DNA from: Bacteroidales bacterium | GTDB taxonomy: Bacteria > Bacteroidota > Bacteroidia > Bacteroidales > WCHB1-69 | Direction: 5' to 3' | Assembly (NCBI GenBank): GCA_017540505.1 | Contig: JAFYAW010000033.1 | Coordinates: 1 to 32,270 of the forward strand | Length of the DNA: 32,270 nt | Part shown: positions 1-32,270 of the stretch, one piece after another | Numbering within the stretch: position 1 is the stretch's first letter | Layout of the letters: the number at the start of each line of letters is the position of its first letter | Notes under the pieces: generated by a model | The model's database searches: none | What the model was told of the DNA's origin: nothing | The model's input: the letters and a program-made list of their open reading frames with translations, nothing else | Position numbers and translations under genes: made by a program

Positions 1-699
1 ACTCGTTGCCACGGGAGCCAGATTAGGTTTACCCGTCAGGTCGTTGTACGCGCCGCTGGTAGCGACAGGGGCCAGGTTGGGTTTGTTGGTCAGGTTATTG
101 TAGTTGCCGTCGAAGCCCGCAGGCAGTTTCACGAAGCTGCCGCCCGTCAGGTAAATGGTGTCGTTGCTGATGGTCAGAATCTGCGATTCGGTGAAGGTGG
201 GCCGGTTCGTGAGGTCGTTGTAATCACCGCTGGTCGCTACGGGGGCGAAGTTGGGGATGTTGCTCAGGTCATTGTAGTCGCCGGTGAATCCGTTGGCGGC
301 CTCCTGCGCGAACAGGGCGTAGGGCACGCTCAACAACTGCTGCACACTGGTGATGCTGTAGCTGATGCCGCCGTCCGGATCAATCTCCGACTTCAGGAAA
401 TAGGGGCTGTTGGCCCAGTTGATATGCTCGAAGGAGCCGCTGACGGCGTTACCGCCGCCAATCACCACGGTCATCAGACCGTTGGCGTTAGTGGTCGTAC
501 TGTGGTTTTCCACATACACGGGCGTTCCGGATTCGGAGCCTTGTAGAATGGAAATCCGTACAGATACGTTATGGTTGGTAATCAACACGTTGCCGCTGTT
601 GCGCACGACGGCTTGATAGGTCATTTTCTGCGGGGTCTGCGCCAACAGAGCCGCTACGGAGAAAACGACAAAGCTTAAAAGAAGGAAAAATCTTTTCAT
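1..699 (-). CDS. Secreted surface protein with YNDLTNKP-type repeats (3' end outside window)
   Basis: Only the first 233 codons lie in the window; the gene runs off at base 1 with no stop. The start is the ATG at 697-699. It gives a clear signal peptide (MKRFFLLLSF, hydrophobic run, cut near LLAQ). After it comes a conserved N-terminal module (TPQKMTYQAVVRN; later WANSPYFLKSEIDPDGG and SVPYALFAQEA), then at least four copies of a short repeat around YN(D/N)L(T/S)xxP, separated by APVATSG. Bacteroidota often encode large exported proteins of this layout, resembling tail-fibre or collagen-like adhesins; this is known of the family, not shown here. Function is therefore only surface-exposed, possibly adhesive. 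The missing C-terminus would show whether it carries a T9SS sorting domain. A hairpin terminator separates it from the gene upstream. Confidence 0.8.
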   Translation of the reverse strand, partial: MKRFFLLLSFVVFSVAALLAQTPQKMTYQAVVRNSGNVLITNHNVSVRISILQGSESGTPVYVENHSTTTNANGLMTVVIGGGNAVSGSFEHINWANSPYFLKSEIDPDGGISYSITSVQQLLSVPYALFAQEAANGFTGDYNDLSNIPNFAPVATSGDYNDLTNRPTFTESQILTISNDTIYLTGGSFVKLPAGFDGNYNNLTNKPNLAPVATSGAYNDLTGKPNLAPVATS

Positions 700-729
700 A
701 TCGGTGTTGTTTTTAGTTTTTATTCTGAT

Positions 730-766
730 AAAAAGAATCCCTGCAGACTATGGGCCTGCAAGGATT
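730..766 (-). terminator. Intrinsic terminator after the small T9SS protein gene
   Basis: An 11-bp stem (736-746 with 756-766, one G-T wobble) closes a 9-base loop. Read on the minus strand it is followed by a T-rich run at about 730-735. It lies between the stop of the gene at 829-1314 and the start of the gene at 699, so the two are probably transcribed separately. Confidence 0.65.
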
Positions 767-776
767 AGTGAAGTTA

Positions 777-818
777 CAATTATCAATTGCTAATTATTAT
801 TGTTAATTGTAAATTGTT
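777..818. repeat. Degenerate heptamer array, about six units
   Basis: AT-rich stretch with a 7-bp period; units resemble CAATTAT or AATTGTT. It sits just beyond the stop codon (829-831) of the T9SS gene. It belongs to the family of heptamer arrays found at other gene junctions in this window. Confidence 0.6.
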
Positions 819-828
819 GACTGATAGG

Positions 829-1314
829 CTACATTCTGTTCTTCACCACCTTGAAGGTCTTCAGCAGGTTTTTGCCGTCCAAGACGCGCAGCTGATAGGT
901 TGCGGAAGGGTAGGCGTTCATGTCGATTTCGGTTTCCAAATCGGTGACATCGATAATCCGAAGTAGTCTGCCGTTGTTGTCGTAGAGCTGCGCCTTCAAT
1001 CCCTCGGCGGGAATCTCATAGTTGCGGATGCGCAGGTGGACCACGTTACGGGTGGGGTTCGGATAGACAATGGCCTCTAACGTGATGCCAGGATGGTTGT
1101 CCACACCCACGGTCTGGATTTCGTAGGGCTGTTGCACCCCTTCAATGATGTAGGTGTTGCCGTTCTGTATCCGTTGGATGGCGGGTTGGCCGATGGTGTA
1201 AGTGGCGCTGCCGCCGCTGCCAGTCGCTGTGCCTCCCAAGGGCACAATGTCTGATTGCGACATGGCCGTTATACCAATAAAAAGAATAGAGAGAGTAAAA
1301 ATCGTTTTTTTCAT
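829..1314 (-). CDS. Small secreted protein with T9SS type A C-terminal sorting domain
   Basis: 161 residues. A signal peptide (MKKTIFTLSILFIGITAMSQ) is followed by a short Gly/Ser/Thr-rich segment (GGTATGSGGSATYTIGQPA) and a stretch ending EGVQQPYEI. From about residue 82 to the end lies a typical T9SS sorting domain: the YPNPTRN motif, then Y-DNNGRLL and a final TFKVVKNRM-like strand. Such domains carry proteins across the outer membrane, where they are usually cleaved and the cargo attached to the surface. Here the cargo is only about 60 residues, so the protein is mostly export signal. Very similar short proteins often sit beside repeat-rich surface proteins in Bacteroidota, which fits the neighbour at 1-699. 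Its promoter box lies at 1356-1363. Precise role unknown. Confidence 0.85.
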   Translation of the reverse strand: MKKTIFTLSILFIGITAMSQSDIVPLGGTATGSGGSATYTIGQPAIQRIQNGNTYIIEGVQQPYEIQTVGVDNHPGITLEAIVYPNPTRNVVHLRIRNYEIPAEGLKAQLYDNNGRLLRIIDVTDLETEIDMNAYPSATYQLRVLDGKNLLKTFKVVKNRM

Positions 1315-1355
1315 ACTATGGGAATTTTATTGGTTAATCGTTTTTATTATGGCTG

Positions 1356-1363
1356 CAAAGATA
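1356..1363 (-). promoter_or_regulatory. Bacteroidetes -7 box for the T9SS protein gene
   Basis: Reads TATCTTTG on the minus strand, matching TAnnTTTG. It lies 42 bases upstream of the ATG at 1314 and directly abuts the T-tract of the terminator of the preceding gene. No clear -33 TTTG is visible. Confidence 0.6.
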
Positions 1364-1395
1364 AAAAAAAACAGCCGTGCTAACACACGGCTGTT
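1363..1395 (-). terminator. Intrinsic terminator after the radical SAM gene
   Basis: A perfect 10-bp stem, AACAGCCGTG (1370-1379) with its complement (1386-1395), and a 6-base loop, followed on the minus strand by a run of T residues (1364-1370). It ends the operon that starts at 7897. The T-tract runs straight into the promoter box of the next gene. Confidence 0.85.
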
Positions 1396-1417
1396 AATAA
1401 AAATCGGTGATTGTGAA

Positions 1418-2707
1418 TTAAAAAGCGTTGAAGTGGCTTTTGCTGCGGTCCACGTCCTTGCCGAAGCTCTTGTTGGCGAGCTTGCGGTTGCGCGGGCGGT
1501 AGGTGCCGTCTTCCATCTCGCGTAGCATCACCTTGGTGAAGAGCTTGAACATCTTTTCCTCTTGGGTCTCATCGTGATAGAAGGCACTCCAGGCGTATTC
1601 GTACAGCTCCTGAAGGCGTTCGGGCGACATGTGCTTGGGCTGATAGACCACCTGTCCGGCGTTGTAGTGGTCCCAGTCGTGATCGAAAATGCGCCCTTGT
1701 CGCATCAGGTCGTCGTAGGCCTTGGTGTGCGGGAAGGGGGCCAGGATGGTGAACTCGGCCAGATCGAGGTCTATCTTCAGCAGGAAGTCGATAAGGCGCA
1801 GGATGTCATCCTCGGTCTGGTTGTCCAGGCCGAAGAGGATGGTGCCCTCCACCCCGATGCCATAGTCGTGGTAGCGTTTCACCCGCTCCTTGATGTAGTC
1901 GGAGGTGTCATACACGGCCTGATACACGTACCATGCGCCGGCTTGTGCGGCGAGGTCCAGCACCTTCGGGTCGTCCTCAATGGTGTGGCTGATCCACTTC
2001 TTCTTTAGTGGTATCATCTCCCGGAAGAGGTCCATCTCCCATTGCTTGTCTTGGGCCAGCGAGTTGTCCACGATGAAAAGCCGGTTGTTGTCGATGGTCT
2101 CCAAGTCGGCGATGGTCTGGTCAATGGGCCGCGGGCGGAAGCATCGGCCTCCAAGGTAGGAGACGGCGCACGGGTAGCAGCTGAAACGGCATCCGCGGGA
2201 GGCGTGGAAGAGATCCACCATCTGCACACCCTTGTGGTTGTAGAGTTCCCGTTTGTAAAGGTCGCGGCGGGCGGGCCCCACCAGCGCAATGTCGGGCTGG
2301 TGCCCCATATAGTTATAGACCTTCTTGAGACATCCGTTCTGTAAATCCTGGAAAACCTGCTCCTGACGGCCTTCGGATTCGCCTAAAAAGATGCTGTCCG
2401 CATGTTGCAGGGTCTCCTCCGCATGCAGCATGGTGGAGATGCCGCCGAACATGACGGGAATTCCCTTGGCCCGGTAGGCGTCGGCAATGGCCCAGCCCCG
2501 CTTCACCTGTGTGGTGAGCATCATCGAGATGGCTACCACATCGCATTCCTCGTCCATGTCCAAGTCCTCCACGTTCTCGTCCGTGAAAGAGACGTCAACG
2601 TATTCGGGCAAGGTGGCTGCGAAGACCACAGGGCCGTGCGGCGGCAGGTTGAAGGTGGTCTGCCCAGGCAGTTTCTTCCATTTCGGATAAATCAGTTTCA
2701 GTTTCAT
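1418..2707 (-). CDS. B12-binding-type radical SAM protein
   Basis: 429 residues. The N-terminal 130 residues look like a cobalamin-binding Rossmann domain (MKLKLIYPKW, then VVAISMMLTTQ, VMFGGIS and FLGESEG). The DxHxxG motif of base-off cobalamin binders is not visible. The radical SAM cluster motif CxxxCxxC is present as CRFSCYPC (C173, C177, C180). It is followed by FIVDNSLAQ and GTILFGLDNQTEDDI, typical of the TIM barrel in B12-type radical SAM enzymes (often methylases or cyclases acting on unreactive carbons). No close functional assignment is possible. It is the last gene of an operon with an FAD oxidoreductase and an MMPL/acyltransferase exporter, so a lipid or polyene substrate is likely (inference). 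It is separated from the FAD gene by 113 bases of heptamer repeats and ends at a strong terminator. Confidence 0.88.
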   Translation of the reverse strand: MKLKLIYPKWKKLPGQTTFNLPPHGPVVFAATLPEYVDVSFTDENVEDLDMDEECDVVAISMMLTTQVKRGWAIADAYRAKGIPVMFGGISTMLHAEETLQHADSIFLGESEGRQEQVFQDLQNGCLKKVYNYMGHQPDIALVGPARRDLYKRELYNHKGVQMVDLFHASRGCRFSCYPCAVSYLGGRCFRPRPIDQTIADLETIDNNRLFIVDNSLAQDKQWEMDLFREMIPLKKKWISHTIEDDPKVLDLAAQAGAWYVYQAVYDTSDYIKERVKRYHDYGIGVEGTILFGLDNQTEDDILRLIDFLLKIDLDLAEFTILAPFPHTKAYDDLMRQGRIFDHDWDHYNAGQVVYQPKHMSPERLQELYEYAWSAFYHDETQEEKMFKLFTKVMLREMEDGTYRPRNRKLANKSFGKDVDRSKSHFNAF

Positions 2708-2718
2708 ATCTTTTTTTT

Positions 2719-2833
2719 GCTATTGGCCTTTAGCTGTTGGCTATTGGCTATGTGTAATGTATAAATTGTTAATTTTTAATTCTTTGTTCTATTTTTCAGC
2801 CAATTACTAAGGGCTAATAGCTAATGGCTAATT
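2719..2833. repeat. Three consecutive five-unit heptamer arrays
   Basis: The gap between the radical SAM and FAD genes is almost entirely 7-bp tandem units: 2719-2753 (five units like GCTATTG), 2762-2796 (five units like TTAATTT) and 2799-2833 (five units like GCTAATR). Each block is exactly 35 bp. The last block runs into the FAD gene, and its fourth unit supplies that gene's TAG stop (2821-2823). The 2723-2745 segment matches the array at 22370-22392 on the other strand at 22 of 23 bases. Confidence 0.85.
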
Positions 2834-4323
2834 TCTATCTCATCAATAATCTTATTCAACCCTAAAAATTCCGCGCAGGTGAGGGCGGCTCCGATGGTCA
2901 CGCCCAGAATGCCGTGCGAGTTGATGTTCTGGCCGGTCATGAAAAGGTTCGGAATCTTGGTCCGCTGCGACACTAATGTCTGCGTCGGGAAGTTCTTGTC
3001 GCGGATGATGCCGTACATGGATCCGAAACGGGTGGCCGTGTAGTCGCGGTAGGTGAGGGGTGAGGAGGTCTCATACCCCTCGATGGAGGATCGGATGCCA
3101 GGGAAGGATCGCTCCAGCGTGTCGAGGAAGTGCTCGGCGGTGCGCTCTTTGAACTCCAGATACTCTTCCCCTCGCTGCCCGACCTTCGTGTTGGCCCATT
3201 TGGCCACCTCATCAAACTGCATGTACCCGATGAGCTCGGCACTCTGTGCCCATTGCTGCCCGTCTTGCGCGCACTGGTGCATGAACAGGTAGCTGCGCAA
3301 CGGATCTCCAGGCTTCCGGTCGTTGGCCTTCCACACATCTTCATTCTTATAAAAATAGTAGTTGTAGTTGAGGTAGGGTGTGGCATTTTCCTTGAATTTG
3401 ATATAGACGGTGAAATTGGAGATGGTGTTCTCCAATCCGTGGATGCGGTCGCGGTAGGCCTTCCGTATGAGATGGGAGTCGATGATGTCAATGGTGGCTT
3501 GCGGGTGGAAGTTCGAGATGATGGAGTCTGCTTCGATAATCTCCCCGCTAATCAGTTCCACGCCCGTGGCCCGCGTGTCGTTGCACAGGATGCGCTTGGC
3601 CTCGCTGCGGGTGCGGATCTCCCCACCGAAGCGGCGGATGGAATTCGCCAGGGATTGTGCAATACAGTCGCTGCCGCCCACGATGCGCCAGGCACTCTGA
3701 ATGTAGAAGTTGTTGATGAGTGCGTGGATATAGGTCGGCGTCTTGTCACGCACGCCCGCGTAAAGGGGCAGATTGCCCGCCAGCACGTCCCGCAGGGACC
3801 GGTTGTCCGTGACCGAGGCGATGAAGTCGTTGATGCTCGTCTTGATGTAGTCCGCCTCGATGAAGACGTTCTCCTCCACTTTTCTTAAATTGTATAACGG
3901 GGAGGCATCGGCGATGGCCTGCAAACGACGGGTGTACTCGCGCAGATCCTCGCGGTTGTCTGGGAATTGCTGTGCAAGGGTGTCCACAAAATGGTCATAG
4001 CCCGATGCATATTGGTAGTGCCGGCCCGCAATCGAAAACACATCATAACCGCTCTCATCCAAACGGCTGATGGGCACATCGTCCAACAGGTTCAGATAAT
4101 GGAAGAGACGGTGCAGGATCTGTCCGGGCAACATGCTGCCGATGTAGTGCATTCCCGTGTCGAACTTGACCCCGAAGCGTTTGAAGGTCTGCAGACACCC
4201 GCCAATTTGGGCATTCTTCTCCAACAACAGCACCTTGTAGCCGTTTTTGCTGAGGATATAGCCGCAAACCAATCCTCCCAACCCCGTGCCAAGTATGGCA
4301 ATATCGTATCTGTTACTGGACAT
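2821..4323 (-). CDS. FAD-dependent oxidoreductase, retinol saturase / phytoene desaturase (CrtI) family
   Basis: 500 residues, a normal length for this family. The N-terminal FAD-binding fold has GTGLGG (12-17) with an acidic residue at the end of the second strand (E35), then QIGGCLQTF. The motif FDTGMHYIG near residue 55 is typical of RetSat-like members. The C-terminal FAD motif is at about 458-486 (NLFMTGQNINSHGILG). Members desaturate, saturate or isomerise polyenes or fatty chains; the direction here cannot be told. The ATG overlaps the end of the MMPL gene by 11 bases, indicating translational coupling. The last residues (ISH) and stop codon are made by a heptamer repeat, so the C-terminal tail has been shaped by the array. 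In related clusters (aryl polyene, dialkylresorcinol) such oxidoreductases accompany MMPL/acyltransferase fusions, but those clusters also carry ketosynthases, absent here. Confidence 0.88.
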   Translation of the reverse strand: MSSNRYDIAILGTGLGGLVCGYILSKNGYKVLLLEKNAQIGGCLQTFKRFGVKFDTGMHYIGSMLPGQILHRLFHYLNLLDDVPISRLDESGYDVFSIAGRHYQYASGYDHFVDTLAQQFPDNREDLREYTRRLQAIADASPLYNLRKVEENVFIEADYIKTSINDFIASVTDNRSLRDVLAGNLPLYAGVRDKTPTYIHALINNFYIQSAWRIVGGSDCIAQSLANSIRRFGGEIRTRSEAKRILCNDTRATGVELISGEIIEADSIISNFHPQATIDIIDSHLIRKAYRDRIHGLENTISNFTVYIKFKENATPYLNYNYYFYKNEDVWKANDRKPGDPLRSYLFMHQCAQDGQQWAQSAELIGYMQFDEVAKWANTKVGQRGEEYLEFKERTAEHFLDTLERSFPGIRSSIEGYETSSPLTYRDYTATRFGSMYGIIRDKNFPTQTLVSQRTKIPNLFMTGQNINSHGILGVTIGAALTCAEFLGLNKIIDEIEISH

Positions 4324-7300
4324 GGTGCTGCTTTTTTTCGGTTATTGAAGAAAGAAGGTCTTGCTCGTCGATGACAAAATCGAACGATGATTCATTGGGG
4401 AGCTCGGAAGTGTAGTGCAGGTTTTCCGGCACGGAGAAACAATGGGATGCTAAGGCGATGCAGTTGTCGTCGGCATCGTACGCAGTGACGTCTATATGTT
4501 TGCGCAACAGGGCGGCCGTCAGGGAAAGCTCGCCGTTTCCGCAATGCTTGTAAAGCACGCGGCTGCCGTCGGGTATCGGCGCCAGCGCATCGACCAGTTC
4601 CTGCACCCAAACGAGTTTACGGCGGCAGGAAACCTCCACCGCCTTGCCTTTGTAAATATAGTTGTGGTAAACGATATCTTTCAGATACTCTGGAGTTTCA
4701 CAATGCTCCTTCAAAGCGGCGAATTCCTGGGTGAAATAACGGCGGAAGAGTCGGCTGGTCTCCAGTGTGGTTTTTCCGTTTCGGAAATCAGCATCGTTGG
4801 GACGGATGCGCTCCCGGATGGAAATCGTGATGATGCCGCGATGGATGCAGGTGTCGTGCTTGGGGAACATGTCTCCGATGCCGTGCATGATAATGGGCAG
4901 GATGTCCAACCCCATCTTGTCGGCCAGGTGGAATGCTCCCTGATGGAAGCGGAGGATTTCGTGGTCAAAGGAACGGGTGCCTTCGGGGAAGACCAGCACG
5001 GAATACCCCTTATCAATCATCTGCTTGATCTTAGGAAAGTTGGAATCCAATCCGTACGACGCGGGAAGGAAGTCGGCGTTCCGGACGATGCGCCTGTACA
5101 ACGGGGTGTTCCAAGCCCAGTCGTTGGTCAGTACGATGATCTTGGGATGGAGCATGAGCAGGTACATCAGGTCGAAATGCGACTGGTGGTTGCTGACGAT
5201 GACGGCTGGCTTCTCAAAGGTCTCATCGAGAGGGTTGTCAATCGTGAATGAGGAATTCGGGATGACACGTGCGGTTGAATAGAGCAGTTTTCGCAGCAAT
5301 TTATGGTATTTCAACTTGTTGGCGTCATTGCGTTTGCCGAGCACCAACCAGAAGAAGCCGCCGGCGGACAATACCAGCACGCCGAAGAAAAAGTAGGGGA
5401 ACCCGATGACGCTTGTGAACAGGCTGCGGAGCGTGACTGGCTGGCGGCGGGGTTTGCCCTTCCGCATGGTCAGCCACTTGAACACCAACGGTGGGATAAT
5501 GTAGGCCATCATCACCACGGAGAACATCCCGATGATGGTAACCTGCGCCAAAGAGCGCATGGCCGGATGCTTGGCAAACACCAACATCCCGATGCTGATG
5601 AACATGATGGAGGCCGACAGTATGATGGAATTCTTGAACTGCGCTAACATCTTGCGCCCGTAGGCGTACTCGTACAGAAGCCCTTCCGTCACAAAGATGG
5701 AGTAGTCGTCGCCCATACCGAAGATGAAGGTGGCTAAAATGATGTTCACAATGTTGAAACGGATGCCCGTCATGCCCATGATGCCCAAAATCCAGATCCA
5801 GGCAATGAAGAGCGGCAGGAAGGCCATGAGGCTGATTTCCAGTCTTCCGAAAGAAAAGAGCAGGAAGGCAAAGACGATGATTCCGCAGATGTATAGCACA
5901 TAGTTGAAGTCGGAGGAGAGCGCCTCCACTAACCGCGAGGCGATGGAGGTGTCGGTGAAGGCGAAACCGTTATCATGCTCCAATATCCTATTCAGGTCGA
6001 TGTCGATGTTTTCACTATTCTCTTTTTTTACTTTCAAGATGTTGTAAATCATCACCTTGTCTTCTGTCTGCACAATGTAGTTGGTGGCTAACGGTTTCCA
6101 AATCGGTAGGAAGAAGCCGTTGTCTTGAATCCTGTATGTGCGTGCGATGACTTCCTTGCACGGGACAAAGGCTCTCGGGTCGAATCCGTTACGCAAGGCC
6201 GCTTGGTCCAGATCGGCAAAAAAGGCTTCGCGCCTGCCTTCCCAGAAAGCGTTCCACTGCGCAAGCCGTTGCCGCTGTGTCTCTTGGGATGGGATGAAGT
6301 GCCCGATGCCGCTGTAACGGACAATGGCAGAGGGATGGATGCTATCGACTAATGTCAGTTTGCCCAGAGCTGTTTCTTGATTCGAAAGCGCTTCGTCCAA
6401 GGTTTTCCCCTCGGCGATGACATATACCGTGTTGACGGTGGTGTCGCTCTCGGCGCGCAGCTTGTCAAAGGACGCCTGCTGCTCCTTCGTCATGTAGTTG
6501 ATATGGTGCATGTCAGTGTCGAAGGAGGTGCGCGAGCTGAAGATGTAGAACACGATGGTCAACGCGATGATGATCCAGAAAAGCCCACGGATGTTCTCGA
6601 AACGGAATTCAGCCACCTGCCGGAAGGCAAGGTCGCGGTTCGTGCCTTGGAAATGCTTCCCCGTCAGGTGTGGTAGGAAGATGAGCACGAACAGGATAGT
6701 GCCGGCTAACAGCAGGGCGGAAAAGAGCCCGAGGTCCTTCATGGCATCGGAACTGATGAAGAGAAGGCTGAGGAAAGCTCCCACCGTGGTGATGTTGCCG
6801 ATCAGCAACGGGTTGACAATGTCTTTGAGTATCTGCGTTTTATCATCGGTGCGCTTGAAATGTGACAGGAAATGGATGGGGTAGTTGATGGCAATGCCTA
6901 AGATGATGGAGGCCACTCCGATGGCGATTATGGACACCGGATTCTTGACGAATGCGATGAATCCTAAGGCAAACAGCGCCCCGAAGGAGATTGATACCAG
7001 AATCATCAGGATGCTGCGGAAATTGCGGTAATAGTAGTAGAGTAGGGCGACGATGAACAGCAAGGCTATGCCAATGGCCATGAAACTGTCCTTCTTTATC
7101 TGTTTGGAGTTGGTCAGCGACACCTGTGAGGCTCCAAAACAGGAGATGCGCACGCTGCCCTGTTGCAGTTCCACCTCCCGCATGGTCTGGTCGATCAGGT
7201 GCACAAGCTGGCCGTTGCGCTTGGTTTCACTCAGCGGATAGTTGGAGGTCACAATCACTTGGGCTTCTTTCCCGTCTTTGCTGAAAATATGTTCATTATC

Positions 7301-7897
7301 CGTCTGATAGCTGTCGTCGAGTTTGAATTCGGACAGGGCTTGCAGCACGTTGGAGGAGAAGAAGAGCGGGTCGCGCTGGATCATCGGCCGCATCATGGGC
7401 ACGGGCGAGGCGAGGAGCTGTCGGTCTGTAGCCAGTTGTGCGGCGATGTGCTCGGGCGTTACCAATGTGTCCATGCGGCGGTAGTCCTCATCCGTGAGGA
7501 AGTAGGGTAGATTGTCCAATACAAAGGACATTATACCTTCCACTTCTTGGTCGTCCACCTGATAGCGCACCTGCTTGATGAGACCGGAAGTGTCAGCCTC
7601 GGTCAGCTTCTCGGCCATCCTGTCAGCCACCGAGGAGAGAAGATCCAGGTCCGCCTCTGAGGCGGTGTCCTTCATGGCGATGCTGATGACCAGCTTGTTG
7701 TCGCCGCCAAGATGTTGGTAAGCCTCGTTTATGCGCTTGTTTTCGCGATTGTTAGGCAGGAAACTGCCGATGTCTTCCACAAAATGGAGACGCAGCGCCG
7801 ACAGCACACATAAGGCCACAACCAGCAGAAGGGTGAACCATAGCGCGGAACGGTGTTCGTCAAAAAAATGATATATTTTGAGGAAAAAAAAATTCAA
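4313..7897 (-). CDS. Trifunctional MMPL-family exporter / lysophospholipid-type acyltransferase / methyltransferase-like protein
   Basis: 1194 residues. Residues 1-810 form an RND/MMPL transporter: TM1 (about 17-36), a periplasmic domain, a TM bundle (about 272-410), TM7 (about 437-455), a second periplasmic domain and a second TM bundle (about 666-808). The proton-relay motif of the second half is intact (GMGDDY, D731-Y732), but the equivalent in the first half is GIAINY, with N338 in place of Asp. Residues 823-855 are another membrane segment leading to a PlsC-type acyltransferase with NHQSHFD (903-909) and FPEGTRS (970-976). The last 85 residues resemble the start of a SAM methyltransferase (CGNGELS, then YDAD) but are short and may be inactive. 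The start is TTG at 7897; an in-frame stop lies 12 bases upstream and the next ATG would lose TM1. First gene of the lipid-type operon; probably acylates and exports a lipid (inference). Confidence 0.9.
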   Translation of the reverse strand: MNFFFLKIYHFFDEHRSALWFTLLLVVALCVLSALRLHFVEDIGSFLPNNRENKRINEAYQHLGGDNKLVISIAMKDTASEADLDLLSSVADRMAEKLTEADTSGLIKQVRYQVDDQEVEGIMSFVLDNLPYFLTDEDYRRMDTLVTPEHIAAQLATDRQLLASPVPMMRPMIQRDPLFFSSNVLQALSEFKLDDSYQTDNEHIFSKDGKEAQVIVTSNYPLSETKRNGQLVHLIDQTMREVELQQGSVRISCFGASQVSLTNSKQIKKDSFMAIGIALLFIVALLYYYYRNFRSILMILVSISFGALFALGFIAFVKNPVSIIAIGVASIILGIAINYPIHFLSHFKRTDDKTQILKDIVNPLLIGNITTVGAFLSLLFISSDAMKDLGLFSALLLAGTILFVLIFLPHLTGKHFQGTNRDLAFRQVAEFRFENIRGLFWIIIALTIVFYIFSSRTSFDTDMHHINYMTKEQQASFDKLRAESDTTVNTVYVIAEGKTLDEALSNQETALGKLTLVDSIHPSAIVRYSGIGHFIPSQETQRQRLAQWNAFWEGRREAFFADLDQAALRNGFDPRAFVPCKEVIARTYRIQDNGFFLPIWKPLATNYIVQTEDKVMIYNILKVKKENSENIDIDLNRILEHDNGFAFTDTSIASRLVEALSSDFNYVLYICGIIVFAFLLFSFGRLEISLMAFLPLFIAWIWILGIMGMTGIRFNIVNIILATFIFGMGDDYSIFVTEGLLYEYAYGRKMLAQFKNSIILSASIMFISIGMLVFAKHPAMRSLAQVTIIGMFSVVMMAYIIPPLVFKWLTMRKGKPRRQPVTLRSLFTSVIGFPYFFFGVLVLSAGGFFWLVLGKRNDANKLKYHKLLRKLLYSTARVIPNSSFTIDNPLDETFEKPAVIVSNHQSHFDLMYLLMLHPKIIVLTNDWAWNTPLYRRIVRNADFLPASYGLDSNFPKIKQMIDKGYSVLVFPEGTRSFDHEILRFHQGAFHLADKMGLDILPIIMHGIGDMFPKHDTCIHRGIITISIRERIRPNDADFRNGKTTLETSRLFRRYFTQEFAALKEHCETPEYLKDIVYHNYIYKGKAVEVSCRRKLVWVQELVDALAPIPDGSRVLYKHCGNGELSLTAALLRKHIDVTAYDADDNCIALASHCFSVPENLHYTSELPNESSFDFVIDEQDLLSSITEKKQHHVQ

Positions 7898-7918
7898 AAT
7901 CGCTTTTTTTTAAAGGCG

Positions 7919-7926
7919 CAAAAATA
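7919..7926 (-). promoter_or_regulatory. -7 box for the MMPL operon
   Basis: Reads TATTTTTG on the minus strand (TAnnTTTG), 22 bases before the TTG start at 7897. It lies only 9 bases from the divergent -7 box of pgi. No clear -33 box. Confidence 0.5.
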
Positions 7927-7935
7927 CAAAATTTC

Positions 7936-7943
7936 TATCTTTG
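7936..7943 (+). promoter_or_regulatory. -7 box for pgi
   Basis: TATCTTTG, an exact TAnnTTTG match, about 75 bases before the pgi ATG. The leader between them is AT-rich. The -33 region is weak. Confidence 0.6.
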
Positions 7944-8017
7944 CAGCCTCTGTTTTATGTTAGAAGTATAATATTTTGAAAATTAATAATTTAAATTATA
8001 ACCTATAAATTATTGTT

Positions 8018-9322
8018 ATGAAGATTTCTTTACAAGATGCCCTCTTTGCTGTTTCCGAAGCCGAGTTGAAGGCCCAAGCCCCTGCGGCGGAAGCCGCCTA
8101 TCTGGAAACGGTCAACAAAACCGGCAGGGGAAATGATTTCCTTGGCTGGGTGAATCTGCCTCAGGAGGTTTCTGAATCGGAAGTTATGGAAATAGAGTCT
8201 GTTGCCGCACGCCTGGCTGCCAAGTCGCAGGTGGTGGTGGTGATCGGCATCGGTGGCTCCTATCTGGGTGCCCGCGCCGTCATCGAAGCCCTGCAGCACA
8301 GCTTCAGCCCTATGTTGCCGAACGAAAAGCCGCAGATTGTCTATGCTGGCAACAATATGAGCGAGGATTATCTGCACGATCTGTTGGATGTGCTCGCCGT
8401 AAAGGATTACAGCCTTGTGGTGATTTCCAAGTCCGGCACCACGACGGAGCCCGCCATCGCCTTCCGCATCCTCAAACAGCATTGCGAGCAGAAATATGGC
8501 GTGGAGGAGGCCCGTCGGCGTATCGTGGCTATCACCGACAAGGCCCGTGGTGCCCTCAAAACCCTCGCCGACCAGTCCGGCTATCCCACCTTTGTGATCC
8601 CCGATGATGTGGGCGGACGCTATTCTGTGCTCACTCCTGTGGGCCTGCTCCCGATTGCCGCCGCAGGCTTCTCCATCCGCAAACTGCTGGACGGTGCCCG
8701 CGCAATGCGTCAGCAACTGATGGAGGCGAAATCCTTCGACACCAACCCGGCTATGCAGTATGCCGCTTTACGTAATGTTTTGTATAATAAGAATCTGAAA
8801 GTGGAACTGATGACCTCCTTCGAACCCAGATTCTTCTATCTGATTGAATGGTTCAAACAACTCTTCGGCGAGAGCGAAGGCAAGGAACTGAAGGGTATCT
8901 TCCCGGCAGGCGCCATCTTCTCCACCGATCTGCACTCCCTTGGCCAGTATATCCAAGACGGCTCCCGCCAGCTCTTTGAGACGGTCCTGACCGTGGAGAA
9001 TGCGCATCATACGGTTCCAATTCCTTTCGATGAGCAGAATACGGATGGGCTTAATTATCTGCAACACAGAAGTATAAATGAGATTAACCATATTGCACAG
9101 CAGGGAACCTGCCAAGCACATGTGGATGGCAAAGTGCCGAATATCCGCATTACCATTCCTGAAATCAACGAGTTCTATCTCGGCGAACTGATCTATTTCT
9201 TTGAGATGAGCTGTGCTGTCAGCGGTTATATGCTGGGCGTCAATCCGTTTGACCAGCCCGGTGTGGAGGCCTACAAACGCAATATGTTCACACTATTGGG
9301 AAAACCGGGTTACAGTAAGTAA
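8018..9322 (+). CDS. pgi: Glucose-6-phosphate isomerase
   Basis: 434 residues, the short bacterial form (near 445 in Bacillus-type enzymes). Interconverts glucose 6-phosphate and fructose 6-phosphate in the cytoplasm. Visible family motifs: GIGGSYLGARA (77-87), the phosphate-binding SKSGTT (137-142), GGRYSVLTPVG (from 199) and, in the C-terminal half, GIFPAGAIFSTDLHSLGQ. All the expected SIS-domain elements are present and there is no frameshift. The ATG at 8018 begins the conserved N-terminus and follows a promoter box at 7936. The downstream symporter gene starts 34 bases after the stop, and that gap is a heptamer array, so the two may be cotranscribed. Confidence 0.97.
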   Translation: MKISLQDALFAVSEAELKAQAPAAEAAYLETVNKTGRGNDFLGWVNLPQEVSESEVMEIESVAARLAAKSQVVVVIGIGGSYLGARAVIEALQHSFSPMLPNEKPQIVYAGNNMSEDYLHDLLDVLAVKDYSLVVISKSGTTTEPAIAFRILKQHCEQKYGVEEARRRIVAITDKARGALKTLADQSGYPTFVIPDDVGGRYSVLTPVGLLPIAAAGFSIRKLLDGARAMRQQLMEAKSFDTNPAMQYAALRNVLYNKNLKVELMTSFEPRFFYLIEWFKQLFGESEGKELKGIFPAGAIFSTDLHSLGQYIQDGSRQLFETVLTVENAHHTVPIPFDEQNTDGLNYLQHRSINEINHIAQQGTCQAHVDGKVPNIRITIPEINEFYLGELIYFFEMSCAVSGYMLGVNPFDQPGVEAYKRNMFTLLGKPGYSK

Positions 9323-9323
9323 T

Positions 9324-9358
9324 CGCAAACCGTAAACCGTTAATTGCAAACCGTTAAT
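9324..9358. repeat. Five-unit heptamer array filling the pgi-symporter gap
   Basis: Five contiguous 7-bp units like CGTAAAC or CGTTAAT. They start 2 bases after the pgi stop and end inside the ATG of the symporter gene (9357-9359). There is no room for a ribosome binding site other than the repeat itself. Confidence 0.8.
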
Positions 9359-10859
9359 GCAAATCTTCATCTTCTCGTTTTTCCTCTTCTATGTGGTGCT
9401 GTTGTTCGTGATCACAGGAATCACTTCCCGGAAAGCGGACAACCAGACCTATTTCACGGGCAACCGGAAGTCGCCCTGGTTTGTGGTGGCGTATGGCATG
9501 ATTGGCAGCTCGCTCTCCGGCGTGACCTTCATGTCGGTGCCGGGTGATGTTTATACGACCCAGTTTACATACCTGGGGGTTGTACTTGGCTATATTCTTG
9601 GTTATGTGGTGATTGGGACGATTCTTCTGCCGTTGTACTATAAGTCTGGAGTGACCTCCATTTACGAGTATTTAGGGTCGCGGATAGGGAATGAAGCGCA
9701 CAAGACAGGATCGGTGCTTTTCTTTGTGTCGCGTCTTCTCGGATCGGCCTTGCGCATGTATCTCGTGATCTTCGTTCTTCAGGTCTTTGTCTTCGACGGC
9801 TGGCATATCCCGATTTGGTTGACTGCCATTGTGATGATTGCTATCATCCTGCTGTACACCTTCCGCGGCGGTCTGAAAACCGTGGTTTGGACGGATATGT
9901 TGCAGACAACCTTCCTGATAGGGGCTCTGCTTGTCACTATCATTGTGATCATGAAGGATATGGGTGGCTCCTTTTCCGGACTGTGGCAAGCCATGTCGGA
10001 TGTGGGCAAGGATGGCACCGACTGTCGCACGATTGTGAATACGGATTGGCGCAACAACAGCTATTTCCTGAAACAGATTATCGGCGGCATGTTCATCACT
10101 ATTGCCATGACGGGGCTGGATCAGGATATGATGCAGAAGAATTTGTCCTGCAAAACGTTACGTGATTCCCAACGCAATATGTTTTCTTTTACCCTTATAT
10201 TGGTGGTGGTCAATGTGTTGTTCCTCCTCTTGGGCGGGATGCTGCTGGTGTTCGCCAAACGTAACGGCATTGACGTGGCGAGCATGCCCACTGACAGGAT
10301 CTATCCGGAAATCGCGTTCAAGTATTTGGGCAAGTTCGGGGCGCTGGTCTTCGTGTTCGGTCTTATCTCCGCCGGATTTTCCAGTGCGGACGGGACGTTC
10401 ACGGCTTTGACCACGACGGTGTGTTACGACATTCTCGGCATAGAGAAGCGTTTCCCGTCGGCACAGGCGCAGACACGGGTGCGCAGGCTGGTGCATCTGG
10501 CCATATCCATGCTTTTCCTGATTGTGATTATCGTGGTGGCCAACCATCATAACGATGCGCTGATCCGCATCATCTTCACGGTGGCCTCCTATACGTATGG
10601 CCCCTTGCTTGGTCTCTTCGTGTTCGGCATCTTCACTCATCGGGAAATCCCCGCGTCGAGACGCTTCCTTATCCCGCTGATCGCCGTTCTGATTCCCACG
10701 CTCTGCTATATTGTGTCGTCCCATTCCGTGGAGTGGCTTAACGGTTATAAGTTTGGCTATGAATTGCTGATTGTCAATGGTTTGCTTGTGTTCTTCACGC
10801 TGCTGGCCATCAGCCGCCCTCAGCCATCCGCAGTAAGTGAGGAATCTGTTAGTCATTGA
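9357..10859 (+). CDS. Sodium:solute symporter (SSS family)
   Basis: 500 residues with about 13 hydrophobic segments, beginning at the very N-terminus (IFIFSFFLFYVVLLFVI), as usual for this family. The SSS signatures are visible: KADNQTYFTGNRK after TM1, GMIGSSLSGVTFMSVPGD in TM2 and FRGGLKTVVWTD in the middle (compare the GGLxAVxxTD motif). Imports an organic solute using the sodium gradient; the substrate cannot be told from sequence (sugars, sialic acid, amino acids and vitamins all occur). Linkage to pgi hints at a sugar but is weak. The ATG overlaps the last unit of the heptamer array. The C-terminal 20 residues are hydrophilic. Confidence 0.93.
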   Translation: MQIFIFSFFLFYVVLLFVITGITSRKADNQTYFTGNRKSPWFVVAYGMIGSSLSGVTFMSVPGDVYTTQFTYLGVVLGYILGYVVIGTILLPLYYKSGVTSIYEYLGSRIGNEAHKTGSVLFFVSRLLGSALRMYLVIFVLQVFVFDGWHIPIWLTAIVMIAIILLYTFRGGLKTVVWTDMLQTTFLIGALLVTIIVIMKDMGGSFSGLWQAMSDVGKDGTDCRTIVNTDWRNNSYFLKQIIGGMFITIAMTGLDQDMMQKNLSCKTLRDSQRNMFSFTLILVVVNVLFLLLGGMLLVFAKRNGIDVASMPTDRIYPEIAFKYLGKFGALVFVFGLISAGFSSADGTFTALTTTVCYDILGIEKRFPSAQAQTRVRRLVHLAISMLFLIVIIVVANHHNDALIRIIFTVASYTYGPLLGLFVFGIFTHREIPASRRFLIPLIAVLIPTLCYIVSSHSVEWLNGYKFGYELLIVNGLLVFFTLLAISRPQPSAVSEESVSH

Positions 10860-10933: not shown

Positions 10934-11644
10934 ATGAAAAAGTATTTCGCTGAAATGGTGGGAACGTTCGTTCTCACGTTACTTGGCTGCGGAACGGCTA
11001 TGTTCCTCGGTTGTGCCACTCCTGCGGGCGTGGTCGGTACGGCTATTGCCTTCGGTCTTTCCGTGGTGGCAATGGCTTACACTATCGGCGGCATTTCCGG
11101 TTGCCACATCAATCCGGCCATCACGCTTGGAGTTGCCCTTTCGGGACGTATGAGCTGGAAGGATGCCATCGGCTACTGGTGCGGCCAGATCATCGGTGGT
11201 ATCATCGCCGGTGCTGTCCTGTTGGCTCTTGTCAACATCGTGACTCCGTCGGCCTGCGGTATTGCAGAGGGCATGACTGGCCTTGGCTGTAATGGTGTTG
11301 CCAATGCGGGTGGTCCGCTGGGTGCCTGCCTCGTGGAAATCATCGCCACCTTCATCTTCGTGCTGGTGGTGCTGGGTACGACCGATGAGAAAGTCGGTGC
11401 CGGCAACTTGGCTGGTCTGGCTATCGGTCTGACGCTGATCCTGATCCACCTCGTATGCATCAATCTGACGGGCACTTCCGTGAACCCCGCCCGTTCCATC
11501 GGACCGGCCCTGTTCGCTGGTGGCCAGGCTTTGTGCGACCTGTGGGTGTTCATCGTGGCTCCGCTCATCGGTGCAGCCCTTTCCGCTTTGGTCTGGAAAT
11601 GCTTCAGCTGCGACAAATGCTGCTGCAAGAAAGATCAGGAATAA
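10934..11644 (+). CDS. aqpZ: Aquaporin, AqpZ-type water channel
   Basis: 236 residues, six TM segments and two NPA boxes (60-62 and 184-186). The residues lining the selectivity filter match the water-specific AqpZ type: F40, H172, T181 and R187 by alignment to the known E. coli F43/H174/T183/R189. A glycerol facilitator would have smaller residues there, so water rather than glycerol is expected. The C-terminus has a cysteine- and lysine-rich tail (CFSCDKCCCKK), unusual and possibly a metal-sensitive or disulfide-prone cytoplasmic end. A strong terminator follows 18 bases after the stop; 74 bases separate it from the symporter upstream. Confidence 0.95.
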   Translation: MKKYFAEMVGTFVLTLLGCGTAMFLGCATPAGVVGTAIAFGLSVVAMAYTIGGISGCHINPAITLGVALSGRMSWKDAIGYWCGQIIGGIIAGAVLLALVNIVTPSACGIAEGMTGLGCNGVANAGGPLGACLVEIIATFIFVLVVLGTTDEKVGAGNLAGLAIGLTLILIHLVCINLTGTSVNPARSIGPALFAGGQALCDLWVFIVAPLIGAALSALVWKCFSCDKCCCKKDQE

Positions 11645-16601: not shown

Positions 16602-16609
16602 CAAAGACA
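16602..16609 (-). promoter_or_regulatory. Probable -7 box for the esterase gene
   Basis: Reads TGTCTTTG on the minus strand, one mismatch from TAnnTTTG, and lies 20 bases before the ATG at 16582. It supports this start over the one at 16630. Confidence 0.4.
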
Positions 16610-16662
16610 ACTAATTTCCACAGATTTCAAGAATCAGTTGAAAACAACAAATAGGTTTCTCC

Positions 16663-22319: not shown

Positions 22320-22366
22320 TGTTTGAGGAATGTGTTTCAATATATTATGTTTTAAGTTTTTCAATA

Positions 22367-22401
22367 GCTAATAGCCAACGGCTAAAGGCCAAAGGCTAAT
22401 T
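22367..22401. repeat. Five-unit heptamer array after the RND gene
   Basis: Five contiguous 7-bp units of the form GCYAAnn, with units 1 to 5 in perfect 7-bp register. The last base is the first base of the RND gene's stop (22401-22403). The 22370-22392 part matches the minus strand of 2723-2745 at 22 of 23 bases. Confidence 0.85.
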
Positions 22402-25538: not shown

Positions 25539-25625
25539 ATTTTACGTTGTTTGCTGTTGGGTGTTAGGGCTTTGAACAATGAACTATGACTATGAACTTT
25601 AGGTGTTGAAAATAGGTGTCCCCCC

Positions 25626-25695
25626 TCAACTATCAACTATTAATTATTAATTGTTAATTGTTAATTGTTAATTGTTAATTGTTAATTGTTATTTG
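25626..25695. repeat. Ten-unit heptamer array between the RND and MFP genes
   Basis: Ten contiguous 7-bp units, from TCAACTA (two) through TTAATTA to six exact TTAATTG and one TTATTTG. The first three bases of the last unit are the MFP stop codon (25689-25691). The flanking 25546-25607 is also built of degenerate 7-bp units (for example GAACAAT, GAACTAT, GAACTTT, with one 6-bp unit). Confidence 0.9.
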
Positions 25696-26708
25696 TTCTC
25701 CACATTCACTTCCAGACCGTCTTTCAGGCGGGCGAGGCCGGTGGTGGCCACGAGGTCGCCGTCCTGTACGTCGCCGGAGAGCAGCTCGTAGGCATTGCCC
25801 AAATGGCGTCCGGTTTCCACCCGGATGAAGGATACCTTGCCGTCTTTATAAACATATACGTAGCGGTTGCCGGAGCCTTGTTGGCGGAAGATGGCCTCGT
25901 CGGGGACGACCACGTGGTGCGAGGTGCCGAAGTTCACCGTCACGCGGGCGTACATGCCCGGGCGCACGCGACTGTTGGCGTTGGGTAGCTGCACCTCCAC
26001 GGGGAACGTGTGCGTGGCACCGTCGATGGTCGGGTAGATGAGGCTGATGCGGCCCTTGAACTCCTCGTCGCCGTAGGCGTCCACCTTGACCGAAACGGGC
26101 ATCCCGACCTTCACCTTCTGGAACAGGGATTCCGAAAGGTTGATTTTCATCTTCACGGGGTTGATCTGCTGGATGGTGACCACCGGAAGTCCGCCGTAAA
26201 GATCTCCGCTGTCATAGTTGCGGGCGGAGACGACGCCGTTGATGGGGCTGATCAGCCGGGTGTTCTCCAACAGGTTGTCGTAGGTGGTCTGCGCCACGTC
26301 AAGCTGGGTCTTCATCGCGTCCCAGTCGGCTTTGGAGGTGCCGCCAACCTTGTAGAGCTCGTCGATACGGTTGAAGCTGGCCTTCAGGTTGTCGAGCTGC
26401 ACCTTGGCCTGCTTGAGGCTGTTCTCGTTCATCTGCACAAGGACCTTGCCCTTGCTCACACGGTCACCCACCTCCACGTAGATCTTGTCGATGCGTCCGC
26501 CGGTCAGGGGGGCGATGTTGTTCACGGCTTCCGCCTCCACGGTTGCTGTGTATTCGTAAACCTGGTCCACATCCTGTGCGCTGACCTGCTGCGTGCGGAT
26601 GGTTATTTTCTGATTGCTGATGGCCGCGTCTTTGTTCTTGTCTTTGCAGCCGGCACACCCCATCACCACGAGGGCTGTCAGGGCCATGATCTTTATCGTT
26701 CTCTTCAT
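25689..26708 (-). CDS. RND efflux periplasmic adaptor lipoprotein (MFP)
   Basis: 339 residues. A signal peptide with a lipobox ending at C18 (VVMGC) suggests anchoring to the inner membrane by lipid. Membrane fusion domains in order: beta-barrel start (DVDQVYEYTATVEAEAVNNI), lipoyl half (GRIDKIYVEVGDRVSKGKVLVQM), a helical hairpin (KQAKVQLDNLKASFNRIDELYK), second lipoyl half (ISPINGVVSARNYDSGDLYGG) and membrane-proximal domain (VRPGMYARVTVNFG). Joins the RND pump to TolC. The stop codon lies inside a heptamer array. Starts 45 bases after the TolC stop. Confidence 0.94.
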   Translation of the reverse strand: MKRTIKIMALTALVVMGCAGCKDKNKDAAISNQKITIRTQQVSAQDVDQVYEYTATVEAEAVNNIAPLTGGRIDKIYVEVGDRVSKGKVLVQMNENSLKQAKVQLDNLKASFNRIDELYKVGGTSKADWDAMKTQLDVAQTTYDNLLENTRLISPINGVVSARNYDSGDLYGGLPVVTIQQINPVKMKINLSESLFQKVKVGMPVSVKVDAYGDEEFKGRISLIYPTIDGATHTFPVEVQLPNANSRVRPGMYARVTVNFGTSHHVVVPDEAIFRQQGSGNRYVYVYKDGKVSFIRVETGRHLGNAYELLSGDVQDGDLVATTGLARLKDGLEVNVENK

Positions 26709-26753
26709 ACTATATATAATTATAGGTAGATTTTATTCTTGTTTTAAAAAATA

Positions 26754-32228: not shown

Positions 32229-32242
32229 GTTCCATTAGTTTT

Positions 32243-32270
32243 AAGTTTCAAGTTTCAAGTTTCAAGTTTC
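32243..32270. repeat. Heptamer array running off the window end
   Basis: Four exact AAGTTTC units in tandem up to the last base, with a degenerate unit before (32236-32242). It lies 14 bases after the CapA stop. The true length is not visible. Confidence 0.85.

What the first reader, a model, noticed from the sequence alone, without database searches (positions are those of the whole stretch)
2719..2833. Intergenic heptamer arrays: a repeat family keeping a 7-bp period and mostly a five-unit length but changing sequence between loci
Seen directly: 777-818, 2719-2753, 2762-2796, 2799-2833, 9324-9358, 22367-22401, 25626-25695 and 32243-32270 are tandem 7-bp units. Five of these blocks are exactly five units (35 bp) and one is ten. 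The unit differs by locus (GCYAAnn, CGTAAAC, TTAATTG, AAGTTTC), so this is not simple slippage of one repeat. Heptameric STRR repeats are known from cyanobacteria; I know of no formal description for Bacteroidales. Because 7 is not a multiple of 3 and most units contain TAA or TAG, an array puts stops in all three frames, which could be a fail-safe for translation readthrough (inference). A DNA-binding protein or a copying mechanism that counts units is another possibility.
Basis: partly seen in the sequence, partly recalled or inferred. Interest (0 to 1): 0.78.

Follow-up and report, generated by a model that had tools for sequence, protein, structure and literature searches.

The report
Polar heptamer arrays at gene edges
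In a group of ruminant-gut bacteria, many gaps between genes carry short runs of a 7-letter DNA word that hug the end or start of a gene, mostly point one way, and can be replaced by a different 7-letter word in a relative, so spacing, place and direction seem to matter more than the letters.

Summary
In 372 kb of this genome, period 7 gives 35 arrays (27 intergenic) against 0 in simulated intergenic sequence; periods that are not multiples of 3 or 7 give 0-3. Three of the eight listed blocks are weak, and "five units" is not strict (commonest run: four). Arrays hug gene edges, above all stop codons (79 of 129 stop-side arrays within -25..+5 nt), with a strand polarity that array-free gap DNA lacks; it holds in the main family and in the others. 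Main-family inverted pairs came 21:0 in one order, yet cognate arms pair no better than swapped arms. That family, GCYAAHR, is a strict degenerate code whose neighbouring units are near-independent draws. Orthologous gaps carry different families in relatives. The code recurs patchily in 53 of 393 genomes of the order. Closest known: GGGAATC/GGGGAYT heptamers of Xanthomonas and Nostoc (PMC4692102), with the same polarity, there linked to G-quadruplexes; the main families here lack G-runs. Best reading: slippage-born, fast-turning gene-boundary arrays, probably kept for a signal on the strand leaving the gene. Function is unproven.

The parts
2719..2753 (-). GCYAAHR array (four units at 2719-2748) just upstream of the start of the B12-binding/radical-SAM-like gene 1418-2707(-); start-side arm
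   Evidence: present with small changes in L078 and in G018 locus L209
2762..2796 (.). weak AT-rich period-7 stretch between the two arms
   Evidence: 2730-2790 scored as one stretch
2799..2833 (+). GCYAAHR array overlapping the stop of gene 2821-4323(-); stop-side arm, inverted relative to 2719-2753
9324..9358 (+). weak CGYAAAC/CGTTAAT units filling the gap between the PGI-family gene and the sodium:solute symporter-family gene
   Evidence: period 14; ortholog in L078 has period 7
22363..22401 (+). GCYAAHR array directly after the stop of the AcrB-family efflux gene 22401-25538(-); absent in G018; other heptamer families stand there in several congeners
25626..25697 (+). ten-unit TCAACTA/TTAATTG array overlapping the stop of the HlyD-family gene 25689-26708(-); looks young; two units shorter in G018
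32237..32270 (+). AGTTTCA array starting 9 nt past the end of the PGA_cap-family gene, cut by the window end
777..818 (.). weak, indel-containing TAATTGT-like stretch after gene 829-1314(-)

Best explanation
These are gene-boundary heptamer arrays: dispersed short tandem repeats of 7-bp pitch. Step 1 (shown): arrays change length in whole 7-nt units, as slippage would do, and some are copied between loci; turnover is fast enough that the same stop codon carries different unit families in related species. Step 2 (supported): mature arrays are not free to drift. In the commonest family positions 1, 2, 4 and 5 are fixed and positions 3, 6 and 7 vary almost only as Y, H and R, with neighbouring units drawn nearly independently. 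Arrays sit at gene edges with a polarity: the strand that reads out of the gene is the G-richer one, at starts and at stops alike. Step 3 (inferred, about 0.3 by itself): because a polymerase leaving a gene in either direction copies that same strand, the array probably works as a boundary signal on transcripts leaving the gene (sense tails past the stop, antisense tails past the start), read by a factor or structure that needs about four units at 7-nt pitch. The factor is unknown.
For: Birth and turnover: two units' difference between G000 and G018 at 25626, one or more units in other pairs; long near-identical arrays (window 25626; L075 AATAATT); copied arrays with flanks; different families at orthologous stops in congeners and, in 1 of 14 orthologous clusters, between G000 and its sister G018 (L060:15674, flanks 95% identical). 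Code: of 184 middle units, G 179, C 180, A 183, A 183 at positions 1, 2, 4, 5; position 3 C 109/T 74; position 6 A 46/C 64/T 74/G 0; position 7 A 131/G 50. Adjacent units identical 0.173 against 0.154 (sd 0.016) by within-array shuffle. Polarity, C>G on the inward strand: stop-adjacent 58 to 18, start side within 80 nt 34 to 3, background none; by gap type 69:28, 12:3, 23:3, 11:0; without the commonest family 45:12 and 24:3, and without the stretches picked for it 45:16 and 31:2. Inverted pairs 21 to 0 (not all independent). In other families of the order 11 to 2 within 40 nt. Run length peaks at four units. Xanthomonas and Nostoc G-rich heptamers show the same polarity (PMC4692102, section 13 read).
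Against: No expression, binding or mutant data. The polarity at stops has exceptions (18 of 76 untied) and weakens away from the edge: 13:8 at 6-30 nt, 10:5 at 31-80 nt, 7:9 beyond 80 nt at both edges together, and 7:6 beyond 40 nt in the other families, duplicates dropped. Several families are interchangeable, which is odd for one reader. GCYAAHR and TCACTRW co-occur across the order hardly above chance (8 genomes, 5.1 expected), which argues against one dedicated machinery. The low core divergence between sister species is helped by requiring a perfect core on one side.
Confidence: 0.4

Rival explanations
1. Neutral slippage repeats: 7-nt replication slippage and recombination make the arrays; they survive only where harmless, and the polarity just reflects what is tolerated (A/C-rich leaders before starts, stop-rich tails after stops).
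For: Unit-sized length changes, near-identical arrays, fast turnover; heptamer excess in bacteria has been put down to polymerase slippage (PMC4692102 discussion).
Against: Strict per-position code with near-independent neighbours; run length peaked at four rather than falling off; clustering at the stop codon rather than across the gap; 21:0 pair order.
Confidence: 0.25
2. Protein-binding heptad arrays: a DNA-binding protein with 7-bp pitch (as ParB/omega on pSM19035 parS) coats arrays of four or more units at gene edges.
For: Fixed positions plus degenerate ones and a mode of four units resemble parS heptads, where four contiguous 7-bp repeats are needed (PMC9499535, abstract and passages).
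Against: Pfam RHH_1 found in 0 of 40 genus genomes while 8 of 14 control genomes had it (other RHH families were not tested); many unrelated unit families; strong polarity, whereas different orientations of four parS repeats worked alike.
Confidence: 0.18
3. Fail-safe stop arrays: units carrying a stop codon, repeated at a pitch that is not a multiple of three, close all frames around a gene.
For: All three sense frames closed in 52 of 79 stop-adjacent arrays (antisense 30; array-free 11%) and 25 of 38 start-side arrays (antisense 16); together 77 against 46 of 117, sign test p 3.3e-5; at stops, families other than F1 44 against 23 of 58, p 7.5e-4; genes with an array within 5 nt of the stop end in TAG more often (37 of 79 against 217 of 936).
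Against: The commonest family shows no sense preference at stops (8 against 7 of 21) and no excess of the stop-making letter; start-side families other than F1 reach only p 0.12 (22 against 15 of 29); GGGAATC repeats of Xanthomonas, which share the polarity, hold no stop codon in the printed direction (my reading).
Confidence: 0.1
4. RNA or DNA hairpin: the inverted arms pair across the gap.
For: Inverted pairs in one fixed order, 21 to 0; 22 of 142 arrays have a complementary stretch in their gap at score 10 or more, while no array's mean over ten shuffles reached that.
Against: Cognate arms are no more complementary than swapped arms (10.1 against 11.4, sd 0.6); most of the 142 arrays have no such partner; some gaps combine different families (L104, L123).
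Confidence: 0.05
5. Mobile-element ends: arrays are terminal repeats of a MITE, or are spread by a Y1 (RAYT-type) transposase.
For: Some arrays are dispersed copies with flanks; Y1_Tnp is present in 36 of 40 genus genomes and absent from three array-poor ones.
Against: G060 lacks a Y1_Tnp match (genome 90% complete) but has 179 array matches, and the array-poor G007 has four Y1_Tnp matches; arms of a pair are not copies of each other; by eye I saw no shared core between the arms at different loci (not computed).
Confidence: 0.04

Closest known systems
G-rich heptamer repeats GGGAATC (Xanthomonas) and GGGGAYT (Nostoc/Anabaena), PMC4692102 (sections 10, 13 and 16 read, plus passages)
   Same: 7-bp unit with fixed and variable positions, mode of four units, dispersed, about 90% intergenic in Xanthomonas, overlap with stop codons, near ORFs on the strand leaving the gene at both ends, convergent inverted pairs (Xanthomonas; few in Nostoc), length variation between relatives, few between divergent genes
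   Different: the main families here have no fixed G-runs; many unit families in one genome instead of one; different families at orthologous gaps, whereas most Xanthomonas repeats stay between the same genes; another phylum
TAACTGA direct repeats of marine Beggiatoaceae, some Cyanobacteria and five Bacteroidetes, PMC4679880 (abstract and passages read)
   Same: intergenic heptamer direct repeats next to genes; already seen in Bacteroidetes, including Paludibacter, with other heptamer repeats noted in Gramella and Aequorivita gaps
   Different: one fixed unit there, mostly before start codons in the main genome studied; here many degenerate units, mostly at stops
Heptamer-derived satellites such as (GATAGRA)n of Chloroflexus, PMC6749651 (passages read)
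   Same: dispersed heptamer tandem repeats in a bacterium
   Different: polarity and gene-edge placement not seen in the passages read; not compared
Cyanobacterial STRR heptamers (recalled; Calothrix heptanucleotides are mentioned in PMC4692102)
   Same: tandem heptamers in intergenic DNA
   Different: no STRR sequence was compared here
parS heptads of plasmid pSM19035 bound by the RHH ParB/omega, PMC9499535 (abstract and passages read)
   Same: contiguous 7-bp repeats with fixed and degenerate positions; four or more needed
   Different: plasmid centromere of fixed sequence WATCACW; no RHH_1 match found in the genus

Membership tests
G-rich heptamer SSR (Xanthomonas/Nostoc type) | tandem 7-bp units, dispersed and mostly intergenic | tested here: met
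   (27 of 35 intergenic)
[quoted passage not shown]
   with exceptions; rule as printed in PMC4692102 section 13
G-rich heptamer SSR (Xanthomonas/Nostoc type) | convergent inverted pairs | tested here: met
   21 to 0 for the GCYAAHR family
G-rich heptamer SSR (Xanthomonas/Nostoc type) | G-tracts of three or four able to form G-quadruplexes | tested here: not met
   fixed cores of the families read lack GGG; single units with GGG and a minor GGGATTT-type unit exist
TAACTGA repeats | unit TAACTGA | tested here: not met
   not among the common necklaces of the sampled stretches; no genome search for TAACTGA was run
TAACTGA repeats | mostly just before start codons | tested here: not met
   129 stop-side against 44 start-side arrays
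parS/omega heptads | unit WATCACW | tested here: not met
   the TCACTRW family shares only TCAC
parS/omega heptads | RHH ParB protein | tested here: inconclusive
   RHH_1 0 of 40 genomes; other RHH models not searched
REP/RAYT elements | linked Y1 transposase | tested here: not met
   G060 has arrays without a Y1_Tnp match (genome 90% complete)
Cyanobacterial STRR | STRR consensus units | not tested
   no STRR sequence was compared

The most novel reading that the evidence does not exclude
There is a general bacterial class of polar gene-boundary arrays in which the pitch (7 nt), the length (about four units), the place (gene edge) and the strand polarity are kept, while the unit sequence is replaceable. 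The Xanthomonas and Nostoc G-rich heptamers would then be one dialect of it, G-quadruplexes would not be the cause, and some part of the transcription or RNA-decay machinery would read spacing and strand composition rather than a fixed sequence.
Probability: 0.25. Interest if true: 0.8.

Novelty: new variant of a known kind. Interest (0 to 1): 0.52.

Why it matters
Heptamer repeats have been reported in Xanthomonas, Nostoc and Beggiatoaceae and discussed in terms of G-quadruplexes, translation control or polymerase slippage. Here the same place and polarity occur without fixed G-runs, with many interchangeable unit families, and families differ at the same stop codon between related species. 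That separates what is kept (pitch, place, polarity) from what is not (sequence), and turns an old puzzle, why seven, into something testable by deleting or inverting a single array.

Tried and rejected
RAYT/Y1 transposase as the agent: presence first seemed to follow the arrays, but G060 lacks a match and has 179 array matches. Hairpin pairing: cognate arms no better than swapped. One co-inherited machinery for all families: GCYAAHR and TCACTRW overlap in 8 genomes, 5.1 expected (my counts from the tables). Pure slippage: hard to square with the near-independence of neighbouring units. Hypermutation at position 6 of GCYAAHR: suspected after one array with 7 of 7 changes, but over 43 pairs it differs at 35 of 171, close to four-fold sites (22.3%), so it looks merely free. 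Known RNA families: no match in the window at gathering threshold. Intrinsic terminators: in window 1-10000 none of six hits fell on an array. Paper searches for heptamer, heptanucleotide or 7-bp repeats with Bacteroidales, Bacteroidetes, rumen or bacteria (listings seen, one search showed 12 of 75) gave no paper that by title or abstract start describes these units; only the held open-access library was searched.

Full report
What was checked. The window is contig C14 of an unnamed 2.51 Mb genome in 51 contigs. Named contigs encoding its closest relatives of one window protein are ruminant-gut Bacteroidales MAGs. I scanned the window and 340 kb of two long contigs for self-similarity at every period from 2 to 30. 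Period 7 stands alone: 35 arrays, 27 intergenic, mean 0.0 in five first-order Markov simulations of the 58 kb of intergenic sequence. Periods 14, 21 and 28 are its harmonics; 9, 12, 18 and 27 lie almost wholly in coding sequence; periods that are not multiples of 3 or 7 give 0-3.

Where they lie. With a simple codon-usage gene caller of my own (start sites are approximate) I placed arrays in 79 stretches, 1.5 Mb, of this genome and congeners. 23 of the 79 (L052-L074) had been picked because they held GCYAA arrays; they gave 34 of the 173 arrays. 20 more (L132-L151) surround orthologs of the window genes. 136 of 670 gaps of 30-600 nt hold an array: 114 of 495 co-directional, 10 of 75 convergent, 12 of 100 divergent. 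Of 173 arrays, 129 are nearest a stop and 44 nearest a start; 79 of the 129 lie within -25..+5 nt of the stop codon, often containing it. Genes with an array that close end in TAG 37, TAA 28, TGA 14, against TAA 509, TAG 217, TGA 210 in the rest.

Polarity. Read into the nearest gene, arrays have more C than G: 58 to 18 at stops (within 5 nt), 34 to 3 at starts (within 80 nt); array-free gap DNA shows little or no skew (C .198/G .196 and .191/.176). It weakens with distance and is gone beyond 80 nt (7:9, both edges together). By gap type, within 80 nt: 69:28 and 12:3 for stops in co-directional and convergent gaps, 23:3 and 11:0 for starts in co-directional and divergent gaps. It does not rest on one family or on the picked stretches: without the GCYAAHR family (F1) 45:12 at stops and 24:3 at starts; without the picked stretches 45:16 and 31:2. 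An earlier count on this genome alone, by F1 motif, gave 29 inward and 9 outward of 46, 8 being set aside. F1 inverted pairs within 200 nt, in all loci then held, come in the order TTRGC..GCYAA 21 times and never in the other; several of the 21 are orthologs or share an arm, so they are not all independent. In six genomes of other families of the order, 30 loci gave 49 array placements: 16 without a usable flank, 1 in coding sequence, and within 40 nt of an edge 14 rule-following and 2 rule-breaking, or 11 and 2 after I dropped duplicates by hand (G069 3:0, G218 6:0, G388 2:1, G395 0:1; G247 and G113 gave none so close); beyond 40 nt it was 7 to 6.

The code. In F1, a unit flanked by two perfect units is G 179/184, C 180, Y (C 109, T 74, A 1), A 183, A 183, H (A 46, C 64, T 74, G 0), R (A 131, G 50, other 3). 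All 12 GCYAAHR words are used. Adjacent units are identical in 0.173 of 243 pairs against 0.154 (sd 0.016) in within-array shuffles and 0.102 (sd 0.019) in a global shuffle, so neighbours are nearly independent draws, not fresh copies. Other families show the same style, as I read their tables: TCACTRW (56 middle units), CTCTMAW (35), ACAATKN (30), CGYAAAY (21). Of 173 arrays 52 hold F1 units and 79 more hold one of eight other named families; 42 hold none. An octamer family of similar style also exists.

Turnover. The gap between gene 2821-4323 and gene 1418-2707 holds AATAATT, AGCTAAT, AATAGTT and TTAGAGA units in different relatives, and a close match to the window in L078; L080 lacks the middle gene. 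The efflux-operon gap 25539-25688 holds TAACAAT, TTRGC/GCYAA, GGTTATD, other units or none across 30 loci (one of them the window's own, one not reaching the start, four without the upstream gene's end). The neighbouring gap 26709-26753 has no array in the window and G018 but AACTCCT, ATTCATA, TAATTGC, AACTGAC, TAACTAC or CTACTCT arrays in congeners. The efflux gene, ending in NEV in the seven genomes where an array lies within 5 nt of its stop, is followed there by at least four families. Against the sister species G018, 14 of 87 array clusters had an ortholog in the stretches I held: one swapped an F1 pair for a CAGTGAW pair (L060:15674, flanks 95% identical), one lost its array (22363), one differs by two units (25626), one by a unit (L068), three are kept with substitutions (L038, L040:2702, window 2730), one is reworked (L035:18279), two have long insertions in one species (L035:4627, L072), and four are in coding sequence. 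In 43 F1 pairs among four sister species (10 further pairs rejected as dissimilar; some may be redundant) differences were G 9/169, C 8/170, Y 24/170, A 4/170, A 5/170, H 35/171, R 25/172. Four-fold sites differ by 22.3%, second codon positions by 2.4%, aligned intergenic sites by 10.1% between G000 and G018. Since one side was required to have a perfect core, core rates see one branch only; even doubled, the two A positions stay about four times below H, and the G and C positions about twice below.

Spread. GCYAANN arrays occur in 32 of 35 congeners. The stricter GCYAAHR pattern occurs in 53 of 393 genomes of the order and 41 of 204 genera, patchily within genera (for example 0, 33, 0, 0, 141 overlapping matches in genus g34; matches are not arrays, and a start-of-array pattern found only 4 in the genome with 141). 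The reversed pattern occurs in about 22 genomes, by my count, with up to 33 matches. TCACTRW arrays occur in 38 of 393, its reverse in about 17; the F1 and TCACTRW sets share 8 genomes, 5.1 expected (my counts).

Mechanism. Length changes in whole units and long near-identical arrays point to slippage-type birth; some arrays are copied with their flanks. The code, the peak at four units, the clustering at stops and the polarity suggest selection afterwards. Hairpins are disfavoured because cognate arms pair no better than swapped ones (10.1 against 11.4, sd 0.6), although 22 of 142 arrays do have a complementary stretch in the gap. Fail-safe stops fit several families but not F1. Since a polymerase leaving a gene through either end copies the same G-richer strand, I favour a boundary signal on outgoing transcripts. 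That step is inference; no reader was found (RHH_1 0 of 40; Y1 transposase not required).

Against the known. The Xanthomonas and Nostoc heptamers share pitch, mode of four units, intergenic place, stop-codon overlap, polarity and, in Xanthomonas, convergent pairs (PMC4692102), but are G-runs of one family and mostly stay between the same genes. TAACTGA repeats (PMC4679880) are of one family and in the main genome studied lie mostly before starts. parS heptads (PMC9499535) are a protein-bound precedent for 7-bp pitch and a four-unit minimum. I file this as a new variant of gene-edge heptamer repeats, and note that it weakens the case for the G-quadruplex as the general cause of the polarity.

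Noticed in passing
L040:2374-2420, 8203-8240, 16609-16644; L041:2550-2589, 11549-11582: Heptamer arrays (ACAATTC type) inside coding sequence, in a C-terminal LYPNPNNGQFTINNEQFTINNVNVYDVYGKLL-like stretch that looks like a type 9 secretion sorting domain (name recalled, not tested on these proteins); 21 nt, three units, keep the frame and encode a 7-residue repeat.
   Followed up: partly
window:22255-22330: Chain of palindromes (CCCCAC..GTGGGG, GCGCTTCGCGC, CCTCTTCGAGG) that recurs, with changes, in a different gap in several congeners (L106, L110, L112, L121, L125 by eye; L110 by pattern): a dispersed palindromic repeat.
   Followed up: partly
window:11780-11804 and several gaps of the sampled genome: An octamer array family (about ARYTAAGR, e.g. 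GTTAAGGAACTAAG) is among the commonest intergenic words beside the heptamers.
   Followed up: no
L054 and L061 (ends of contigs C16 and C6): The same sequence of about 110 nt abuts a conserved GGTCAACCTTATTCAGGCATTAACA module beside F1 arrays at two contig ends; perhaps the end of a mobile element.
   Followed up: no
G035: F1 matches in G035 lie almost all on one strand of their contigs (15:0:1 with the looser pattern); they are few arrays on four contigs.
   Followed up: no
window:31244-31289: A 24-bp tandem duplication near the start of the PGA_cap-family gene.
   Followed up: no
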